A DNA stretch of 64,000 nt from the NCBI GenBank assembly GCA_015060245.1, contig SUYU01000001.1, positions 124,001 to 188,000 of the forward strand, read 5' to 3'. Below are positions 16,625 to 24,483 of the stretch, piece by piece. A program made the position numbers and the translations under genes. This stretch comes from Bacteroidales bacterium (GTDB lineage Bacteria > Bacteroidota > Bacteroidia > Bacteroidales > UBA932). The first letter of the stretch is position 1, and each line of letters starts with the position of its first letter. Under the pieces are notes generated by a model. That model was not told the origin of the DNA, searched no databases, and was given only the letters and a program-made list of their open reading frames with translations.

Positions 16625-19117
16625 ATGAAAAGAGTTTTTCTGTTTTCAACAGCCATTTTATTGAGCATGCTGGCAACAGCACAATCATTGGAAATTACAA
16701 GGGTCAAGCATGCCGGCCCTTTCATGGTATCTGCCCCGTTCATGGCAGACAGCACCGGCATTGATTTCAAAAAATGGGATGCAAAATCGCTATTGGAACT
16801 CCCCATTTCATCAACTTCACTGGAGGGTGCCCAATATCGGGAGATGTCCTCCATTACAGAGAACGTCAATGGCGGCAAAGGCAATAGTCTCAACCTGATT
16901 GGCTTTGTGCTCCAGAGCAGCAGATACACAAAAGCCACCATCAACATTGAGGGGGTTGACAATTTTCAGATTTATCACAACGGCAAGAAGATAAATGGAA
17001 AAGAGGTGGTTCTGGAACCTGCAACACACGATATTGCCGTGAGATATCTGTCGGGAAGCGCAGATGGGGATCTGAAAATAGGTGTAACACCGGAGCAGAA
17101 AGGGTCACTCACTGTAAGGGAAGACGGCAAAAGGTCCTATACCATTCTTGATGTGCTGCATGGCAAAAGATTGGCAGGAGTGAGACTCTCTCCAAGCGGC
17201 AAATATGTCATGACCTACTACGCCACTACTCTTGAGGGCGGGAAAAGCAGTTATGAAACTACCGTAAAGGAGGTTGCTACCCAAAGGGTCGTTGCACGCA
17301 CCGGGCAGTCGTTGGGCTGGATGCCGGCATCTGACCGCTACTACTATACAAGAGAGGTCATTGGAGGCAAGGAGATTGTAACCATTGATCCGGCAACAGG
17401 CAAAGAGGAGATTTTTGCCAATTCGCTTCCTAACGGCTATTTTCAGATAGCACCAACTGAAGATTACCTGTTGTATACACTATCAGAGGAAGGTCCGGCG
17501 GAGCGCAAGGAGATCTACCAGGTGCTTGAACCTGATGACAGGCAGCCAGGCTGGAGAGAACGCTCATACATTGCAAAATATGACCTTGCCACCGGAGTGA
17601 TGCAGCCCGTAACTTTCGGCTACAACAACACACGTGCGCTCGACATCTCTGCCGACGGCCGTTATGCGCTTGTAATGAAGAGCGAGGAGCGTCTGACCAA
17701 AAGACCTACTTCCCTCTATTCTGTTTATAAAATTGACCTGGAGAGCCTTGAGGCAGAACTAATTGTTGAGAAAGACGGCTTCATAAACGCAGCCCAGTTC
17801 TCACCTGACGGCAGCAAAATCCTTGTTTGCGGCTCACCGGAGGCCTTTGACGGCATAGGCAAAAATGTTAAGGAGGGCCAGACTCCCAATATGTATGACT
17901 ACCAACTCTACATCATTGATTTGGCAAATGGCGGCCCAAATGCCCAAAAGGTCTCTACTTCCACTAAAATTGTCAGGCCAATGACAAAAGATTTCAATCC
18001 CAACGTACAGCAGCACGTATGGAGCAAATTTGACAACCAGATCTACTTTACAGCAGAGAACAGGGATTTGATAAGCCTCTATAAAATGGACCCTGAATCG
18101 GGCAGAATTGGGCAGTTGCAATCTTGCGAAGATCTTGTAAACGGCATATCGCTGGCAAAAACTGCCCCAATTATGGCCTACTACGGCCAGGGCGCATCAA
18201 ACTCAGACCGTTCCTATATGGTTGACCTTAAAAAGATGCGTACAACTCTGCTTGAGGATTTGAGCAAAGAGATTCTTGAGGGTATTGAACTTGGGGAGTG
18301 CATTGCCTGGGATTTCACAAACTCAAAGGGCGATATTATAAATGGACGCTACTATCTTCCGCCTCACTTTGACCCGTCAAAGAAATACCCGCTTATTGTC
18401 AACTATTATGGCGGATGCAGCCCTACAAGCCGCAACTTTGAGAGCCGCTACCCTCATCACGCATACGCTGCATTGGGATATGTGGTTTATGTTGTAAATC
18501 CAAGCGGAGCAACCGGTTTCGGACAGGAGTTTGCCGCACGCCATGTAAACACCGCAGGCCAGGGTCCTGCTGAAGATATAATTGAGGGAACCAAGGCCTT
18601 CTGCAAAGCCCACCCATTTGTCAACGACAAGAAAATAGGTTGCATTGGAGCATCATACGGAGGATTCATGACACAATACCTCCAGACGCAGACAGACATT
18701 TTTGCAGCGGCAATCTCTCACGCCGGCATAAGTGACCATACCAGTTATTGGGGCGAAGGCTACTGGGGATACTCCTACAGCGAGGTCTCAATGGCCAACA
18801 GTTACCCTTGGAGCAATCCCGATCTGTACGTAAAACAGAGCCCGCTCTTCAATGCACACAAAATAAATACCCCTCTGCTTTTTGTTCACGGAGATTCCGA
18901 CAAGAATGTGCCGGTTGGCGAGAGTATACAGATGTTTACCGCATTAAAACTTTTGGGCAAGGAGACTGCAATGGTTCTTGTTACAGGCCAGGACCACCAT
19001 ATAAAGGAGTATGGCCAACGGATCCAATGGCAGAACACCATCTGGGCCTGGTTTGCAAAATGGCTTCAGGATGACCCCACATGGTGGGATGCAATTTATA
19101 CACCCAAGAATTTGTAG
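16625..19117 (+). CDS. S9-family serine exopeptidase (prolyl oligopeptidase fold)
   Basis: 830 residues with a signal peptide ending at about LATAQS. An N-terminal domain and beta-propeller (about residues 20-570) narrow access to a C-terminal alpha/beta-hydrolase domain. The triad is visible: Ser677 in GASYGG, Asp759 in HGDSDKNVP, and His791 or His792 in GQDHHIKEYGQ. Such enzymes remove dipeptides or N-acylated residues from peptides in the periplasm. At 830 residues it is longer than DPP IV or DPP5 and closer in size to the acylpeptidyl oligopeptidase of Porphyromonas, so an AOP-like role is possible. It converges on the signal peptidase gene with only 18 bp between. Confidence 0.88.
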   Translation: MKRVFLFSTAILLSMLATAQSLEITRVKHAGPFMVSAPFMADSTGIDFKKWDAKSLLELPISSTSLEGAQYREMSSITENVNGGKGNSLNLIGFVLQSSRYTKATINIEGVDNFQIYHNGKKINGKEVVLEPATHDIAVRYLSGSADGDLKIGVTPEQKGSLTVREDGKRSYTILDVLHGKRLAGVRLSPSGKYVMTYYATTLEGGKSSYETTVKEVATQRVVARTGQSLGWMPASDRYYYTREVIGGKEIVTIDPATGKEEIFANSLPNGYFQIAPTEDYLLYTLSEEGPAERKEIYQVLEPDDRQPGWRERSYIAKYDLATGVMQPVTFGYNNTRALDISADGRYALVMKSEERLTKRPTSLYSVYKIDLESLEAELIVEKDGFINAAQFSPDGSKILVCGSPEAFDGIGKNVKEGQTPNMYDYQLYIIDLANGGPNAQKVSTSTKIVRPMTKDFNPNVQQHVWSKFDNQIYFTAENRDLISLYKMDPESGRIGQLQSCEDLVNGISLAKTAPIMAYYGQGASNSDRSYMVDLKKMRTTLLEDLSKEILEGIELGECIAWDFTNSKGDIINGRYYLPPHFDPSKKYPLIVNYYGGCSPTSRNFESRYPHHAYAALGYVVYVVNPSGATGFGQEFAARHVNTAGQGPAEDIIEGTKAFCKAHPFVNDKKIGCIGASYGGFMTQYLQTQTDIFAAAISHAGISDHTSYWGEGYWGYSYSEVSMANSYPWSNPDLYVKQSPLFNAHKINTPLLFVHGDSDKNVPVGESIQMFTALKLLGKETAMVLVTGQDHHIKEYGQRIQWQNTIWAWFAKWLQDDPTWWDAIYTPKNL

Positions 19118-19135
19118 CAGACAACTGCAGTAACA

Positions 19136-19657
19136 CTAAAATTTGAAGATAACCTTTCCCTCTATCCTACCCGCCGGTACTGGTCCATAATTTCGGGAGT
19201 CCAAGGAGTTTACAAGGTTATCACCGCAGAAATAATAGTAATCCTCAGCATAAAGTTCTTTTGTGTGGGGATTACTATCTCCTTTTTTAGGCAAATATAG
19301 AGGCAATACATTCTTTATTGCCCCAGAAGTTTCAGACATATAGGAAAGTTTTTTCTGGCTCTGCAGCAATCCAACCTGCACTCCATTTGACAATTTGAAA
19401 TAACCATTTACCAGACTGATTGTATCTCCCGGTATAGCGACACACCTTTTTATGACTGCAATTTCATTATCTGCCAAATAAAAGACCGCCATATCATTGC
19501 GACCCACCTTTGAAAGTTTGCTTATTACAACCACATCTCCACTGCCCAGAGTTGGCAGCATAGAGTTTGACTCTACAATATACCAGTCAAAGAAAAAAAT
19601 ACGCACCACCACTAAAAATGACAAGGTGCCTGCCAATATTCTAAATACAATTTTCAT
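19136..19657 (-). CDS. Signal peptidase I (S26 family), short form
   Basis: 173 residues with one N-terminal membrane anchor (about residues 5-25). The catalytic Ser32 lies in VESNSMLPTL and the general-base Lys70 in AVIKRCVAIPGD; box E GDNLVNSLDSRNYGPV is present. It cleaves exported preproteins on the outer face of the inner membrane. It is shorter than the usual LepB, so it may be an accessory enzyme with a narrow substrate range. It is divergent from the NVEALA-like peptide gene, sharing a palindromic promoter-like element, which suggests that it processes that peptide (inference). Confidence 0.88.
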   Translation of the reverse strand: MKIVFRILAGTLSFLVVVRIFFFDWYIVESNSMLPTLGSGDVVVISKLSKVGRNDMAVFYLADNEIAVIKRCVAIPGDTISLVNGYFKLSNGVQVGLLQSQKKLSYMSETSGAIKNVLPLYLPKKGDSNPHTKELYAEDYYYFCGDNLVNSLDSRNYGPVPAGRIEGKVIFKF

Positions 19658-19673
19658 AACACTCCCGACAGCA

Positions 19674-19707
19674 TTTTGCGAAGTTACAATTATATCCTTA
19701 ACTTCGC
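19674..19707. promoter_or_regulatory. Palindromic divergent promoter-like element, copy 1
   Basis: TGCGAAGTTA, 12 nt, TAACTTCGCA is a perfect 10-bp inverted repeat. Read on either strand it gives TAACTTCG, one base from the -7 consensus TAnnTTTG. On the plus strand TTTG (19675-19678) lies 20 nt before it. It sits between the signal peptidase and the peptide gene. Confidence 0.5.
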
Positions 19708-19812
19708 AGTTTTATTTTTTGCAGCTGCTATTTGTGTAACCGGAATTACACTTTCCCAAAACAACGAGTACAAAAAATTATTGGAACTGAATAAAAAGGC
19801 GTTGGCAAGTGA
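19674..19812 (+). repeat. Direct repeat, copy 1 (leader and promoter of small peptide gene)
   Basis: 139 bp repeated at 21320-21458 without gaps and with about ten mismatches by hand count. It covers a promoter-like element and the hydrophobic leader of the NVEALA-like peptide. Similarity stops abruptly after GGCAAGTGA. Confidence 0.9.
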
Positions 19813-19987
19813 GGACCAAGTTCAATTTGGCGAGTGGAAACTATAGGGCAGGTGTGGTTACGCTATTATTGAATGTACATACACTTGCACTAATTGTCAT
19901 ACTGAACTTACTACAGGTATTAATGGCAGATCATTTGATATGAGCGGCAATTGTCCAGTATGCGGAGAAGAACCTATTAACAACTGA
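19676..19987 (+). pseudogene. NVEALA-like small Cys-rich peptide, copy 1, with in-frame TAG
   Basis: One frame runs from TTG 19676 to TGA 19985-19987 but has a TAG at 19844-19846 (codon 57). The leader part is a hydrophobic signal (VLFFAAAICVTGITLSQ) followed by LELNKKALAS, which matches the NxxALA motif of Bacteroides NVEALA peptides. After the TAG the same frame encodes a tail with cysteine pairs (CTYTCTNC, then CPVC). No ATG is available; TTG would be the start. Either the gene is dead, or only the 56-residue leader form is made, or the UAG is read through. The propeller lipoprotein starts 6 bp later. Confidence 0.6.
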
Positions 19988-19993
19988 TAATTT

Positions 19994-21040
19994 ATGAGGA
20001 ACTTTCATCTTGCACTATTAAGTTGCGTTACATTCTTACTTTGTATTTCCTGTTCTCAAAATATAGAAGAATTTAATTTCAATAAGGAGTTTTGCCTAAG
20101 CGGTGGGGATACATTAGTCCATGATATCCCTACCACTGGTACGCGTTTTATCGATATAAACGATTCATTATTGGTAATACAAATGGTTAACACCATAGAT
20201 AGAAAACTTATCTACTTCTACAAAAAAGATAATGGAGAGTTGGTACAATCGTTCGGAGAAATTGGCAATGGTCCGGGAGAATTCCACAAATCTTTTAATT
20301 TGGCATTGGATAATGGAAAACAGAGATTGATTTGTACAGATCCATATAAGTTCGTCCATTACAACATTGACTCCATACTTAACGGAAATTTTTCTTATTC
20401 CTTACAAGAGTTCAACATCAACAACTATGGATCCAAACCGATTTATTTGAAAGACTCACTCTTTCTAACATACCCACGAGGCAAGAGATATGCCATAGTA
20501 AATTTATATAATGGAGATACATTATTCTGCTATGACCATTTTGAGCACAAATCACCTCTTGATGCAGGCAATGATAACTCACACTCTTTTCTATACTACC
20601 AGTATTGTAATATCGAACGATTAAATCCACAAAAAGACAAATTGGTTTCATTATCCTGCTGTGGACTTGTAATGGAGATTTTCGATATTGAAAATGGGTC
20701 TCTCAAAAGAAGTTTTGCAAAAGAGTATATTAAACCCAAGTACACACTAAAAAGCACTATTGTACCAGAAGAGGGCATACCCGGCATAGCATACTATGCG
20801 TACACAACTGACAAATATATTTACGGAGCATGGTCTGAATCTACAGCAAATATCCCGCCATCAGAAATTGCCATTTTTGACTGGCATGGGACTCCTGTCA
20901 TGAAATTATCTTTTGAAAATAATGACTCAAAGGAGGTATTTGCAATCGATGAAAGCAACAGGACACTATATGCTGTAGTTAAAAACAAGGTAGGCCAACT
21001 CAACATTGTCCGCTACGATATGAGTCATCTGCCACTATAA
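19994..21040 (+). CDS. TolB-like six-bladed propeller lipoprotein, copy 1 (BF3164-like)
   Basis: 348 residues. The lipoprotein signal ends at LCISCSQ (Cys20). The body shows propeller strands and the family mark FGEIGNGPGEF near residue 90 (compare GxGxGPGEF). It ends with QLNIVRYDMSHLPL. It resembles the TolB-like / BF3164 lipoproteins that accompany NVEALA peptide genes in Bacteroides. Function is unknown; a surface or periplasmic binding role is inferred from the fold. It follows a broken NVEALA-like gene and has a paralogue at 21639-22667 with a nearly identical 3' end. Base composition is more AT-rich than in flanking housekeeping genes. Confidence 0.82.
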   Translation: MRNFHLALLSCVTFLLCISCSQNIEEFNFNKEFCLSGGDTLVHDIPTTGTRFIDINDSLLVIQMVNTIDRKLIYFYKKDNGELVQSFGEIGNGPGEFHKSFNLALDNGKQRLICTDPYKFVHYNIDSILNGNFSYSLQEFNINNYGSKPIYLKDSLFLTYPRGKRYAIVNLYNGDTLFCYDHFEHKSPLDAGNDNSHSFLYYQYCNIERLNPQKDKLVSLSCCGLVMEIFDIENGSLKRSFAKEYIKPKYTLKSTIVPEEGIPGIAYYAYTTDKYIYGAWSESTANIPPSEIAIFDWHGTPVMKLSFENNDSKEVFAIDESNRTLYAVVKNKVGQLNIVRYDMSHLPL

Positions 21041-21059
21041 AATGAACATAATAGCACTA

Positions 21060-21095
21060 TAAGGAGTTTGATGTTCTCAGACTCCTTATTTATTG
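21060..21095 (+). terminator. Terminator of propeller lipoprotein copy 1
   Basis: A 12-bp stem with one G-U pair (21060-21071 with 21077-21088) and 5-nt loop, then TTTATTGT. It lies 20 bp after the stop. Confidence 0.7.
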
Positions 21096-21311
21096 TCTAT
21101 TACCTTGAACATTAACTCTTTCAATGATATATTTTCAATATTACCGTGGAACCATAAATTTCATATAACAGTCTATACAATCTTGCGAAGGTACATAGTG
21201 TATAAGTTTATACTTTGATTGCGGGTCTATTTTATAGTTACCATAATTATTACAACTTACTAGTTTCAACAGAACTATGAATAGCAATACTTTTAGAAAT
21301 AAGTGCCTCAT
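21086..21311 (-). pseudogene. Decayed CxxC lipoprotein, antisense between the two peptide units
   Basis: On the minus strand the ATG at 21311 opens 56 codons: a lipoprotein signal with lipobox KLVSCNN, then KLIHYVPSQDCIDCYMKF, and a TAA at 21143-21141. Skipping one base of the AAA after CYM continues as LWFHGNIENISLKELMFKV to a TAA at 21088-21086. A CxxC after a short strand is the start of a thioredoxin-like fold, but the domain is cut short. It looks like the remnant of a redox lipoprotein. Such proteins can accompany NVEALA loci (inference). It is divergent from peptide copy 2. Confidence 0.55.
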
Positions 21312-21319
21312 AATCTTTT

Positions 21320-21458
21320 TTTTGCGAAGTTACAATTATATCCTTAACTTTGTAGTATTATTTTTTGCTGCTGCTATTTGTGTAACCGGAATTACACTTT
21401 CCCAAAACAACGAGTACAAAAAGTTTCTGGAACTGAATAAAAAAGTGCTGGCAAGTGA
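21320..21458 (+). repeat. Direct repeat, copy 2 (leader and promoter of small peptide gene)
   Basis: Second copy of the 139-bp unit at 19674-19812. Differences cluster in the -7 region, where this copy has the exact consensus, and near the LELNKK codons. Confidence 0.9.
21321..21352 (+). promoter_or_regulatory. Consensus Bacteroidetes promoter, peptide copy 2
   Basis: TTTG (21321-21324), 20-nt spacer, TAACTTTG (21345-21352): an exact match to both elements. On the minus strand the same segment offers TAACTTCG for the antisense lipoprotein. It overlaps the first codons of the peptide reading frame, so the promoter and a TTG start at 21322 cannot easily both be used. Confidence 0.65.
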
Positions 21459-21625
21459 TAAGATTTATACCTTTTGGGGGAACATTAAGAGGTTCTTGCT
21501 CTGATGACGCAACTTCTTGCAAATTTATTTGTCCATATTGTAAATATAGTACTGTCCCCGTAGTTTCAGGCCAACCGGAAAATGTTTCGGGTATATGTAC
21601 AGAATGTTTTAATTATATTAACTAA
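21322..21625 (+). pseudogene. NVEALA-like small Cys-rich peptide, copy 2, frameshifted
   Basis: The frame from TTG 21322 (an in-frame ATG lies at 21277) encodes the same leader as copy 1, ending LELNKKVLAS, and stops at 21502-21504. The Cys-rich tail is in the +1 frame (CKFICPYCKYS, then CTEC) and ends at TAA 21623-21625. Removing one G from the run of five at 21476-21480 restores a single frame. The tail has no sequence similarity to that of copy 1 beyond the paired cysteines. This may be a dead gene, phase variation at the T4G5 tract, or recoding. The propeller gene starts 13 bp later. Confidence 0.6.
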
Positions 21626-21638
21626 CTATTAACCTGTA

Positions 21639-22667
21639 ATGAAAAGTTATTTATACATCATTTCTATCACCTTTGCGACCATTTTCTATTCTTGTGCCAA
21701 CAATAAATTATATCCAGGCATTGATTTCCCTCATATAGGAGAGTTGACTAACGGTGACACTGTTGTTAGTGACATCCCTACAGATATGGTAATGAGAATG
21801 TACATTGTTGATTCTTTTGCTTTGTGCCATTGTTTTAATGCGCTTGACAATAAATTAATACATGTTTATAATACCAATAGTGGAAATTTTGTCACCAGTT
21901 TTGGATCAACAGGAAGGGGCCCTGGTGAAATAGACTTATCATATAGCAGTTACAAACAAGATGAAAGGGTAGTGCAAATTATCACTGACCACACATCGCA
22001 AAACATAAAATTTTATCTTGATTCTATATTTGCAGGAGTAAATTATTTCACATCTACCCCATTAAATAGAAATCCCAACAGCGATATATTTTCATTTAAA
22101 GACACCTTATTGATTTCAGATTTTGATTTTAGAAAAAAATACAACTATAGATTTGCCATTATGAATCCCCAAGGAGACACTATCATCTGCTACCGAGATG
22201 GTACATATAAAAAAGACTCTCCTATTGCTATACATCCCAATTACTCAATGTTATTTACCTATACTAACGGGAACTTTGAAACTGAAGTTTTCTCTTTGGA
22301 AAGCAACCAAATTACACTTGCCAATAGAGTAAATTATATTGATCCCAATCGCGTACTTGATGAAGAAATTCTTAAAAGTAAAGATTATCCCGGTTTGGCA
22401 AGTCATATTTATGCGAGTGACAAATATATTTACACAGGATGGTCCAACTCATTAAAATCAAAAGGAAATGATAAAAGTCCTAGCAAACTTCTTATCTTTG
22501 ACTGGAGCGGCAACGCAAAAGGCTTTGTAACTCTTGAAGGACAAGAACATTTCTTCTGGATGAAAGCAGCAGATGAAAAAAACAAAAAGATGTATGTCAT
22601 CATTAAAAATTCCCAAGGCCAACTCAACATTGTCCGTTATGATATGAGTCATCTGCCACTATGGTAA
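21639..22667 (+). CDS. TolB-like six-bladed propeller lipoprotein, copy 2 (BF3164-like)
   Basis: 342 residues. The lipoprotein signal ends at IFYSCANN (Cys19). It carries FGSTGRGPGEIDLS near residue 88, the family motif, and ends QLNIVRYDMSHLPLW. It is clearly paralogous to 19994-21040, but the middles have diverged while the last 15 codons are almost identical in DNA, which suggests gene conversion or strong constraint. Function is unknown. It follows the frameshifted peptide copy 2, repeating the peptide-propeller order of the first unit. It converges on lepA. Confidence 0.82.
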   Translation: MKSYLYIISITFATIFYSCANNKLYPGIDFPHIGELTNGDTVVSDIPTDMVMRMYIVDSFALCHCFNALDNKLIHVYNTNSGNFVTSFGSTGRGPGEIDLSYSSYKQDERVVQIITDHTSQNIKFYLDSIFAGVNYFTSTPLNRNPNSDIFSFKDTLLISDFDFRKKYNYRFAIMNPQGDTIICYRDGTYKKDSPIAIHPNYSMLFTYTNGNFETEVFSLESNQITLANRVNYIDPNRVLDEEILKSKDYPGLASHIYASDKYIYTGWSNSLKSKGNDKSPSKLLIFDWSGNAKGFVTLEGQEHFFWMKAADEKNKKMYVIIKNSQGQLNIVRYDMSHLPLW

Positions 22668-22695
22668 TGACACCTTATACAAAGGCTTATGGCCG

Positions 22696-24483
22696 TTACT
22701 CCAATTTGAGTACGGCCATAAATGCACTTTGAGGTACCTCAACATTTCCTACCTGACGCATCCTGCGTTTTCCCTTCTTCTGTTTCTCAAGAAGTTTTCT
22801 CTTACGTGAGATATCACCGCCATAACATTTTGCAGTAACATCCTTTCGCACTGCCTTAACAGTCTCACGGGCAATGATTTTTGCTCCAATTGCTGCCTGA
22901 ATTGCAATGTCAAACTGCTGGCGTGGGATAAGTTCCTTAAGTTTTTCACACATTTTGCGTCCGAAGTCGTATGCATGGTCTCGGTGGATAAGGCTGCTCA
23001 GGGCATCTACCTGCTCACCGTTAAGAAGTATGTCAAGTTTTACAAGATCTGCATCCCTGTAACCTGTAATATGGTAATCAAATGATGCATAACCTTTTGA
23101 TATTGACTTGAGCTTGTCATAAAAATCAAAGACAATCTCTGCCAATGGAATATCAAAGTTCAATTCCACTCTTTCACTTGTAAGGAAGTGCTGGCTTACA
23201 AGCACACCACGTTTGTCAAGACAGAGTTTCATGATAGGGCCAAAGAACTCACTTTTTGAGATTACCTGTGCCCTTATGTATGGTTCCTCGATTCTGTCTA
23301 TGAGTGTAGGGGCCGGCAAACCGCTCGGGTTATGGACATCCAACTCTTCGCCCTGGGTTGTATATACTTTATATGATACGTTCGGTACGGTTGTTATACA
23401 ATCCATGTCAAACTCGCGGAAGAGTCTCTCCTGAACAATCTCAAGGTGCAGCAGACCCAAAAAACCGCATCTGAAACCAAAGCCGAGGGCAAGGGAAGAC
23501 TCAGGGTCAAATACCAATGAAGCATCGTTCAACTGCAACTTCTCCAATGATGCACGCAAATCCTCATACTCATCCGACTCAATCGGATATACACCGGCAA
23601 ATACCATTGGCTTGACCTCCTCAAAACCGGCAATTGCCTCTGCACACGGAGCATCTACCTTTGTGATAGTATCACCCACCTTCACCTCCACGGCACTCTT
23701 TATACCGGAAATGATATATCCCACATCTCCTGTCTTGATCTCATCCTTCGGACAAAGTTTCATTCTCAACACTCCAACCTCATCGGCTACATACTCCTTG
23801 CCTGTGTTGAAGAATTTTACCTTGTCACCCTTCTTTATAGAACCGTTTTCAACCTTGAAATAGGCAATGATGCCTCTGAATGAGTTGAAGACCGAGTCAA
23901 AGATGAGGGCCTGAAGCGGAGCCTGCGGATCTCCTACAGGAGCAGGCACTTTATTTACTATAGCCTCAAGAATCTCAGGCACACCCTGGCCTGTCTTTCC
24001 GCTGGCAAGAAGAATATCCTCCTCATCACAGCCCAAAAGGTCAATCACCTGATCCTTTACAACCTCAACCATTGCGGCATCCATATCAATCTTGTTCAAC
24101 ACAGGTATTATTTCAAGATTGTGGTTGAGTGCAAGATATAGATTTGATATTGTCTGGGCCTGAATGCCTTGTGTGGCATCAACTACAAGCAATGCACCCT
24201 CACATGAGGCAATCGCACGCGACACCTCGTATGAGAAATCGACGTGGCCCGGGGTATCAATAAGGTTCAATGTATATTTCTCCCCTTTATGGAGATACTC
24301 CATTTGAATAGCGTGGCTTTTGATTGTAATTCCCTTCTCCTTCTCCAAATCCATGGAGTCAAGCACCTGATTCTCCATCTCCCTTGAGGTAAGAGTATTT
24401 GTAGCCTCAAGCAAGCGGTCTGCCAATGTACTCTTTCCATGGTCAATATGGGCTATGATACAAAAGTTACGTATATTCTTCAT
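22696..24483 (-). CDS. lepA: Elongation factor 4 (LepA)
   Basis: 595 residues, the usual LepA length. It is a ribosome-associated GTPase of the translation-factor family. GTPase motifs are [13 protein letters not shown] (P-loop), DTPGHVDF (with the catalytic His) and NKIDM. The LepA-specific C-terminal domain ends with [17 protein letters not shown]. It is divergent from the transketolase gene. TATATTTG on the minus strand (24522-24515) is a possible -7 element. Confidence 0.97.

What the first reader, a model, noticed from the sequence alone, without database searches (positions are those of the whole stretch)
19674..21625. Two small secreted-peptide genes with one leader and unrelated cysteine-pair tails
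A 139-bp segment at 19674-19812 recurs at 21320-21458 with about ten differences and no gaps. It encodes a hydrophobic leader ending in LELNKKALAS or LELNKKVLAS, like the NVEALA peptide motif. Right after GCAAGTGA similarity vanishes, yet both tails carry spaced cysteine pairs (CTYTCTNC/CPVC and CKFICPYC/CTEC). A conserved leader with a variable core is the layout of exported, processed peptides. The tails look exchanged as cassettes.
Basis: partly seen in the sequence, partly recalled or inferred. Interest (0 to 1): 0.75.

Follow-up and report, generated by a model that had tools for sequence, protein, structure and literature searches.

The report
Two broken secreted cysteine-peptide genes
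This stretch holds two damaged genes for small exported cysteine-rich peptides, each followed by a lipoprotein gene; in related bacteria intact versions can sit in a gene set with its own leader-cutting enzyme, which hints at a little-studied peptide export system.

Summary
The repeat is real: 19674-19812 and 21320-21458 differ at 10 of 139 bases, with chance-level similarity on both sides. It encodes a secretion-type leader of about 45 residues. Two points in the finding change. First, neither leader is joined to its tail in one open frame: a TAG separates them in copy 1, and the tail lies in another frame in copy 2. Second, the tails are diverged relatives, not unrelated cassettes. They share G-x-C-x6-C-x3-C-x2-C...S-G-x-C-x2-C with intact peptides of three related genomes (two near-copies), one of which passes Pfam's NVEALA cut-off. 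Each copy precedes a propeller-type lipoprotein, and an S26 signal peptidase is encoded divergently beside copy 1. In the same order, 30 of 36 NVEALA-motif ORFs precede such a lipoprotein. Flanks of accessory S26 genes hold the lipoprotein in 18 of 25 cases (12 of 19 without profile rows), against 0 of 20 housekeeping LepB flanks. Within genomes near-identical leaders do carry different cysteine tails, so the leader/variable-core idea fits the family. Best reading: a decaying NVEALA-like locus, once making exported Cys-rich peptides probably cut after xLA by the linked S26. No function was shown.

The parts
19136..19657 (-). Signal peptidase I-like S26 protease, 173 aa, divergent from leader 1; has the Ser-Met and Lys-Arg positions invariant in alignment A6
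   Evidence: PF10502 E 6.4e-26, TIGR02227 E 1e-29; falls with accessory S26 rows, not with LepB, on a long branch
19674..19812 (+). Repeated segment, copy 1 (starts 2 nt before the TTG of leader 1, ends 2 nt after its S codon)
19676..19846 (+). Leader 1 frame, TTG start, ends at in-frame TAG 19844-19846
19847..19987 (+). Cys tail 1 (six cysteines), same frame as leader 1 but behind the TAG
19994..21040 (+). Propeller-type lipoprotein 1, 348 aa, open
   Evidence: PF15869 24.3 bits (cut-off 29.2); alignments
20948..21038 (+). 3' end of lipoprotein gene 1, 77% identical in DNA to 22572-22662: possible second homogenised patch
21141..21311 (-). 56-aa lipoprotein-like fragment resembling the start of redoxin-like lipoproteins of related loci (YKLIHYVPSQDCIDC)
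   Evidence: 14.4 bits against a 20-sequence home-made profile; no Pfam match; not significant by BLASTP against two single proteins: tentative
21320..21458 (+). Repeated segment, copy 2
21322..21504 (+). Leader 2 frame, ends at 21504 without reaching the tail (an in-frame ATG also lies at 21277)
21455..21625 (+). Cys tail 2 (six cysteines), in another frame than leader 2
21639..22667 (+). Propeller-type lipoprotein 2, 342 aa, open; open also in relative G010
   Evidence: PF15869 27.7 bits (cut-off 29.2); model pTM 0.73, propeller matches in PDB

Best explanation
The region is a decaying NVEALA-like peptide locus. Shown by sequence: two leader/tail genes, both broken between leader and tail; two open propeller-type lipoproteins, one after each; and a linked S26 signal peptidase. 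Intact relatives of peptide and lipoprotein stand in the same order elsewhere. Inferred mechanism of the intact system: Sec inserts the leader by its hydrophobic stretch; the linked S26 protease cuts after the displaced N-x-x-A-L-A (-3,-1) site; the redoxin-like lipoprotein handles the cysteines; and the mature Cys-rich peptide acts outside the inner membrane with the propeller lipoprotein as its partner (receptor, carrier or immunity-type binder). The two window paralogues are old (tails 26% and lipoproteins 34% identical). Their leaders were, by inference, later homogenised by recombination at the DNA level, and both genes were broken.
For: Breaks. Tail homology. Intact relatives: in L054/L092 a peptide is followed by a TolB_like lipoprotein (over cut-off), a redoxin-like lipoprotein (just under cut-off) and an S26 with abutting genes; L085 (NVEALA) and L084 (NVKALA) peptides have the same Cys pattern and end 4 nt before a lipoprotein; L076, the same gene as in L085, passes PF14055, 27.4 against 27. 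Family context: 30 of 36 motif ORFs are followed by the lipoprotein, two of them sharing one; flanks of all 25 accessory S26 matches of at least 200 bits hold the lipoprotein in 18 and a motif peptide in 12, against 0 of 20 and 1 of 20 (a match that does not look like NVEALA) at LepB flanks. Genomes with strong accessory S26 (E<=1e-70, a limit set after seeing the list) also have NVEALA in 9 of 11, against 7 of the other 284. Residue after the L of the motif, not limited by the search pattern: A 29, T 4, G 2, S 1 of 36, fitting a signal peptidase site. Decay: G010 has the same chromosomal site with both tails and lipoprotein 1 gone and its S26 frame shortened at the N-terminus. Within genomes, five pairs with leader protein identity of 88% or more have leader DNA 85-95% and tail DNA 15-61% identical.
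Against: PF14055 does not hit either window leader. The leaders score only 12.9 and 10.0 bits against a profile of 46 NVEALA leaders, reached by 3 and 8 of 500 block shuffles. Six of the seven rows of the S26 profile come from loci fetched for their NVEALA genes or lipoproteins; without those six the linkage is 12 of 19 for the lipoprotein and 6 of 19 for the peptide, and seven of 25 accessory flanks show no lipoprotein, two of them on contigs of about 4 kb. Short S26 genes of 284-336 or 340 aa also stand beside LepB in 6 of 20 control flanks, without lipoprotein or peptide, so shortness alone is no mark of the system. The window S26 is shorter than the accessory forms, fills 39% of the tree columns and sits on a long branch. 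In three of the five leader pairs the 60 bases upstream are alike too (70-83%), unlike the window. S26 cleavage, secretion, disulfides and any binding are inferred, not shown. The peptide model is poor (mean pLDDT 50.8).
Confidence: 0.6

Rival explanations
1. The breaks are assembly or sequencing errors in a draft genome, and both peptide genes are intact and working.
For: The genome is fragmented (39 contigs, 92% complete); the third-position excess of leader differences (6 of 10) would fit a leader translated until recently; both lipoproteins are open.
Against: Two independent breaks of different kind; the near relative G010 has lost both genes at the same site, which fits loss of function.
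Confidence: 0.15
2. The tails were exchanged as unrelated cassettes behind one leader.
For: The similarity ends sharply at the leader end; elsewhere near-identical leaders do carry different tails in one genome.
Against: Here both tails share the same cysteine pattern with each other and with intact relatives; the lipoproteins behind them are diverged paralogues too (34%), so whole units diverged and only the leader stayed or became alike.
Confidence: 0.12
3. Leader and tail are joined by recoding (TAG read-through in copy 1, frame change in copy 2).
For: Both copies break between leader and tail, which a programmed signal would also give; one NVEALA match (G293) is reported with a TGA inside.
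Against: The two breaks differ in kind; the three tail-matched relatives have one uninterrupted frame. The 46 surveyed NVEALA ORFs are uninterrupted too, but were selected as open ORFs. No recoding signal was looked for.
Confidence: 0.04
4. The tails are separate leaderless zinc-ribbon proteins that act in the cytosol.
For: Weak sub-cut-off matches of tail 1 to zinc-ribbon models (DZR E 0.0016; FmdB-type E 0.002); tail 2 has a GTG start of its own.
Against: In relatives the same tail is fused to a secretion-type leader; tail 1 has no ATG, GTG or TTG in its frame before its fourth cysteine; tail 2 has no zinc-ribbon match.
Confidence: 0.05

Closest known systems
NVEALA protein family, Pfam PF14055 (Bacteroidales; no function given in the calls)
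   Same: About 44-residue hydrophobic leader ending in N-x-x-x-L-A, Cys-containing tail, lipoprotein gene directly behind; tail homologous to a peptide that passes the PF14055 cut-off
   Different: Motif is NKKALA/NKKVLA, no PF14055 match of its own, TTG instead of ATG start, both genes broken
TolB_like / 6-bladed beta-propeller lipoproteins, PF15869 and PF17170
   Same: Lipoprotein-type start, propeller model and PDB propeller matches including Bacteroides fragilis BF0058 (4raa), position behind an NVEALA-like gene
   Different: Below the curated cut-offs
Signal peptidase I, S26 (PF10502, TIGR02227)
   Same: Over both curated cut-offs
   Different: Not in the housekeeping LepB clade of the tree; stands next to peptide genes
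Double-glycine-leader bacteriocins and RiPP precursors (recalled, no call)
   Same: Conserved leader, variable core, possible dedicated processing gene nearby
   Different: Leaders end in xLA, not GG; whether C39 peptidase or radical-SAM genes lie near was not searched

Membership tests
NVEALA (PF14055) | Match to the profile over the curated cut-off | tested here: not met
   No match of either window leader at E<=1; best in the whole genome E 0.21, elsewhere
NVEALA (PF14055) | N-V-E-A-L-A motif at the end of a hydrophobic leader | tested here: inconclusive
   NKKALA / NKKVLA at the right place; profile of 46 leaders gives 12.9 and 10.0 bits, 3 and 8 of 500 block shuffles reach it
NVEALA (PF14055) | Tail homologous to that of a recognised member | tested here: met
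   L076 peptide passes PF14055; tail 1 against it score 80, 0 of 2000 shuffles, also with cysteines fixed; tail 2 score 61, 0 of 2000 (14 of 2000 with cysteines fixed)
NVEALA (PF14055) | Leader and tail in one open frame | tested here: not met
   TAG in copy 1, different frame in copy 2
NVEALA-type gene neighbourhood | Propeller lipoprotein directly downstream | tested here: met
   Both copies, sub-cut-off PF15869, propeller model; 30 of 36 NVEALA-motif ORFs elsewhere
Signal peptidase I (S26) | Profile match over cut-off and conserved catalytic region | tested here: met
   PF10502 91.7 bits (cut-off 22.9), TIGR02227 103.5 (cut-off 47); S-M and K-R columns invariant; that these are the catalytic residues is recalled
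Signal peptidase that processes NVEALA leaders | Cleavage after the xLA motif | not testable with these tools
   Only linkage and motif composition
Zinc ribbon (DZR, FmdB type) | Profile match over cut-off | tested here: not met
   Tail 1 E 0.0016 and 0.002, below cut-off; tail 2 no match

The most novel reading that the evidence does not exclude
NVEALA peptides are the substrates of an undescribed Bacteroidales export and maturation system: a fast-diversifying Cys-rich peptide behind a recombining, homogenised leader; a dedicated S26 protease that cuts at a site displaced from the hydrophobic stretch; a redoxin-like lipoprotein for the cysteines; and a propeller lipoprotein as binding partner. 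In the window genome and its nearest relative this system is being lost.
Probability: 0.45. Interest if true: 0.75.

Novelty: new variant of a known kind. Interest (0 to 1): 0.5.

Why it matters
NVEALA proteins are a named Pfam family, but no paper in the held library contains the word. The linkage found here to an accessory signal peptidase and a redoxin-like lipoprotein gives a concrete, testable idea of how they are made and exported. The within-genome pairs, with near-identical leaders and different cysteine tails, look like fast-diversifying secreted peptides, as in bacteriocins or recognition signals (comparison recalled). The window itself is a decayed example and shows how such loci are lost.

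Tried and rejected
Own-genome search for more leader copies: only the two. Same genus: leader in 1 of 39 genomes, the own one; lipoprotein in 2 of 39, own and G010; S26 in 2 of 37 genomes of the genus, own and G010, plus weak matches (E 9e-7 to 8e-6) in 3 of 24 genomes of other families. First genome-contig scan with lipoprotein 1 alone found no relative; the second, with the intact peptides, gave 4 loci, of which L093 (Gammaproteobacteria, 27%) matches at the hydrophobic start of a 255-aa protein and was dropped. Apart from the window and the G415, G563 and G582 hits, the tail hits are weak and partial (E 0.0007-0.01). Six loci (L075, L076, L077, L078, L081, L083) were read and only L075 and L076 kept; the other weak hits were not opened. 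Zinc-ribbon reading considered and rejected (sub-cut-off). Rfam: nothing in the window at the gathering threshold. Peptide fold too poor to use. PDB by sequence for the tails: best E 0.011, HypA, not taken as kin. A promoter reading of the repeat start was noted but not adopted. Paper searches: NVEALA 0 papers; other term sets were seen as listings only, and one paper was opened by passage search (PMC10434189). BLASTP of the 21141-21311 fragment against two relatives was not significant.
Full report
WHAT IS THERE. The direct repeat is as described: 19674-19812 and 21320-21458, 139 nt, no gaps, 10 differences, 6 of them at third codon positions. The 60 bases before and after match at 14 and 16 of 60, that is, at chance. 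The repeat covers the leader almost exactly, from 2 nt before a TTG to 2 nt past the S codon behind the ALA/VLA. The leader protein (45 residues) differs at 3 of 45 positions.

BOTH GENES ARE BROKEN. In copy 1 the leader frame meets a TAG at 19844-19846; the Cys tail follows in the same frame. In copy 2 the leader frame runs on to a stop at 21504, while the Cys tail lies in another frame, 21455-21625. A near relative, G010, has the same chromosomal site: DNA identity is 97.9% over 919 bases on the left (window 18590-19508) and 92.4% over about 8.4 kb on the right, starting at lipoprotein 2. Between them, about 70 bases of G010 take the place of about 2.1 kb; by eye they hold a leader-like scrap. 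The S26 frame there is cut short at its N-terminus. Lipoprotein 2 is open in both (8 codon differences: 5 silent, 3 not, plus one codon missing in G010).

THE TAILS ARE RELATED. Tail 1 and tail 2 align without gaps over 39 residues with 10 identities, six of them the six cysteines. One of 2000 full shuffles reaches the score, and 77 of 2000 when cysteines are held in place, so beyond the cysteines the pair alone is weak. The case rests on third sequences. A search with tail 1, tail 2 and the G415 tail found, besides these three, 2 clear matches, G582 and G563, both about E 2e-8, among 249 genomes of the family (12 of 249 have any match at E<=0.01), and none besides the window at that level among 393 of the order (best other E 7.3e-4). 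These are 92-aa open genes with NVEALA or NVKALA, the same cysteine spacing, and a lipoprotein 4 nt behind. The two peptides are 97% identical, so they count as one line of evidence. Tail 1 scores 77 and 80 against the G415 and G563 tails (0 of 2000 shuffles, also with fixed cysteines). Tail 2 scores 58 and 61 (0 of 2000; 28 and 14 of 2000 with fixed cysteines). The G563 peptide passes Pfam's NVEALA cut-off, 27.4 against 27 bits.

THE NEIGHBOURS. Behind each peptide gene lies an open lipoprotein of 348 or 342 aa, 34% identical to each other. Both fall just under the TolB_like cut-off (24.3 and 27.7 against 29.2 bits). An AlphaFold2 model of lipoprotein 2 (pTM 0.73, mean pLDDT 69.3) matches propellers in the PDB, among them B. 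fragilis BF0058, 4raa. Divergent from leader 1 is an S26 signal peptidase of 173 aa. A 56-aa minus-strand ORF at 21141-21311 resembles the start of redoxin-like lipoproteins from relatives (14.4 bits), but single-sequence comparisons with two relatives gave nothing, so this is tentative.

THE FAMILY PICTURE. NVEALA (PF14055) matches 16 of 295 genomes of the order at E<=0.001, 13 over the cut-off. In 24 fetched loci, 36 small ORFs carry the motif, and 30 of 36 have a propeller lipoprotein within 400 bp downstream on the same strand, two of the 30 sharing one. The lipoprotein profile was built up on the same loci in four rounds. In G415 the order is peptide, TolB_like lipoprotein (over cut-off), redoxin-like lipoprotein (26.4 against 26.6 bits), S26, with abutting or overlapping ends. 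L104 shows peptide, TolB_like lipoprotein, a third gene that looks redoxin-like by eye, S26, and an O-antigen-ligase-like protein. Redoxin-like lipoproteins were found in 17 of 48 loci searched, 20 proteins in all, and in 1 of 20 control loci. A transglutaminase-type gene (L153, L108), a MauE-type gene (L102) and Wzy_C-type genes (L054, L104) also lie in these loci.

S26 LINKAGE AND ITS CONTROL. In 21 genomes an S26 profile gives 25 matches of at least 200 bits (here called accessory; 274-454 aa) and, below these, the LepB of 447-607 aa among others. Of the 25, 18 have a propeller lipoprotein and 12 an NVEALA-like peptide in the fetched stretch. Of 20 LepB flanks, from 20 of the 21 genomes, 0 have the lipoprotein, and 1 has a regex match that does not look like an NVEALA peptide; 6 of the 20 also hold a second, short S26 beside LepB. 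Two cautions apply. The 21 genomes were chosen mostly because they have NVEALA, and 6 of the 7 rows of the S26 profile come from loci fetched for their NVEALA genes or lipoproteins. Leaving those six out, 12 of 19 have the lipoprotein and 6 of 19 the peptide. Across 295 genomes of the order, S26 at E<=1e-55 occurs in 24, of which 9 are among the 16 NVEALA genomes. At E<=1e-70, a limit set after seeing the list, it is 11 genomes, 9 with NVEALA. Leaving out the five that supplied profile rows it is 4 of 6, against 7 of the 284 genomes outside the 11 (both searches report 295 genomes of the order, taken to be the same draw). In a tree of 52 S26 proteins the window protein falls with 21 of the 25 accessory rows (99/96), apart from all 20 LepB rows; its branch is long (2.54) and it fills 39% of the columns, so the place is not firm. 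The other 4 accessory rows, all from G112, lie elsewhere.

LEADER AGAINST TAIL. In the 36 motif ORFs, whose pattern leaves this position free, the residue after the motif's L is A 29, T 4, G 2, S 1. An A-x-A-like end with small residues fits signal peptidase I specificity (recalled); the inner letters are given by the pattern. In a set of 46 peptides all tails hold at least one cysteine and 45 at least two; cysteine makes up 8% of tail residues. Of 74 within-genome pairs, five have leaders at least 88% identical in protein; their leader DNA is 85-95% identical, tail protein 4-26% and tail DNA 15-61%. In three of the five the 60 bases upstream are alike too (70-83%; 48 and 60% in the others), so there the shared stretch is not confined to the leader as it is in the window. 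The window pair (93% leader, 26% tail) is otherwise like these.

LITERATURE. 'NVEALA' occurs in no paper of the held library. A Bacteroides thetaiotaomicron iron study lists BT0662 (O-antigen ligase), BT0663 (hypothetical), BT0664 (6-bladed beta-propeller) and BT0667 (lepB, signal peptidase I) in its tables, with second-column values of 0.113 to 0.437 that I take to be p-values (PMC10434189; passages only). Their nearby locus tags agree with such a locus there, but this was not checked in that genome.

VERDICT. A decaying, divergent NVEALA-like locus. The mechanism (Sec insertion, S26 cut after xLA, redox handling, propeller partner) is inference from linkage and motif; its biological role, antagonism or signalling, is open. 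By the profile and open-frame tests the window genes are not filed as PF14055 members; they are NVEALA-like by tail homology, layout and neighbourhood.

Noticed in passing
window 21321-21352 (and 19675-19706 with a mismatch): The repeat begins with a match to TTTG-N19-21-TAnnTTTG, a Bacteroidetes promoter consensus (recalled). There are 5 matches in the window against 1.15 expected. It overlaps the first ten leader codons, so it is hard to reconcile with a TTG start there.
   Followed up: partly
window 18590-19508 and 21639-22667 against L010: Around the locus the relative G010 is 98-99% identical, while the 8.4-kb stretch from lipoprotein 2 onward averages 92%. This may be recent recombination over this site.
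   Followed up: no
window 20948-21038 and 22572-22662: The 3' ends of the two lipoprotein genes are 77% identical over 91 nt although the proteins are 34% identical. Looks like a second homogenised patch.
   Followed up: no
window 19250-22750: The locus is AT-rich, 31-38% GC, against about 40-50% in the sequence before and after, as expected of acquired DNA.
   Followed up: no
G563:C26:50752-51543 (L139): An accessory S26 match in a relative is reported with one TAG and one TAA inside the matched stretch, although a 300-aa open S26 ORF is found there (L158).
   Followed up: no
L094 10831-13132: Two genes that look like an insertion sequence of the IS21 kind (recalled) stand inside an NVEALA cluster.
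   Followed up: no
L096 4333-4578: An NVEALA peptide of another family has a tail with CTNC...SGSCKIC, resembling the window tail class.
   Followed up: no
L108, L155, L156, L161 (genome G112): The accessory S26 of this genome is longer (386-454 aa) and forms a separate branch nearer the LepB side.
   Followed up: no
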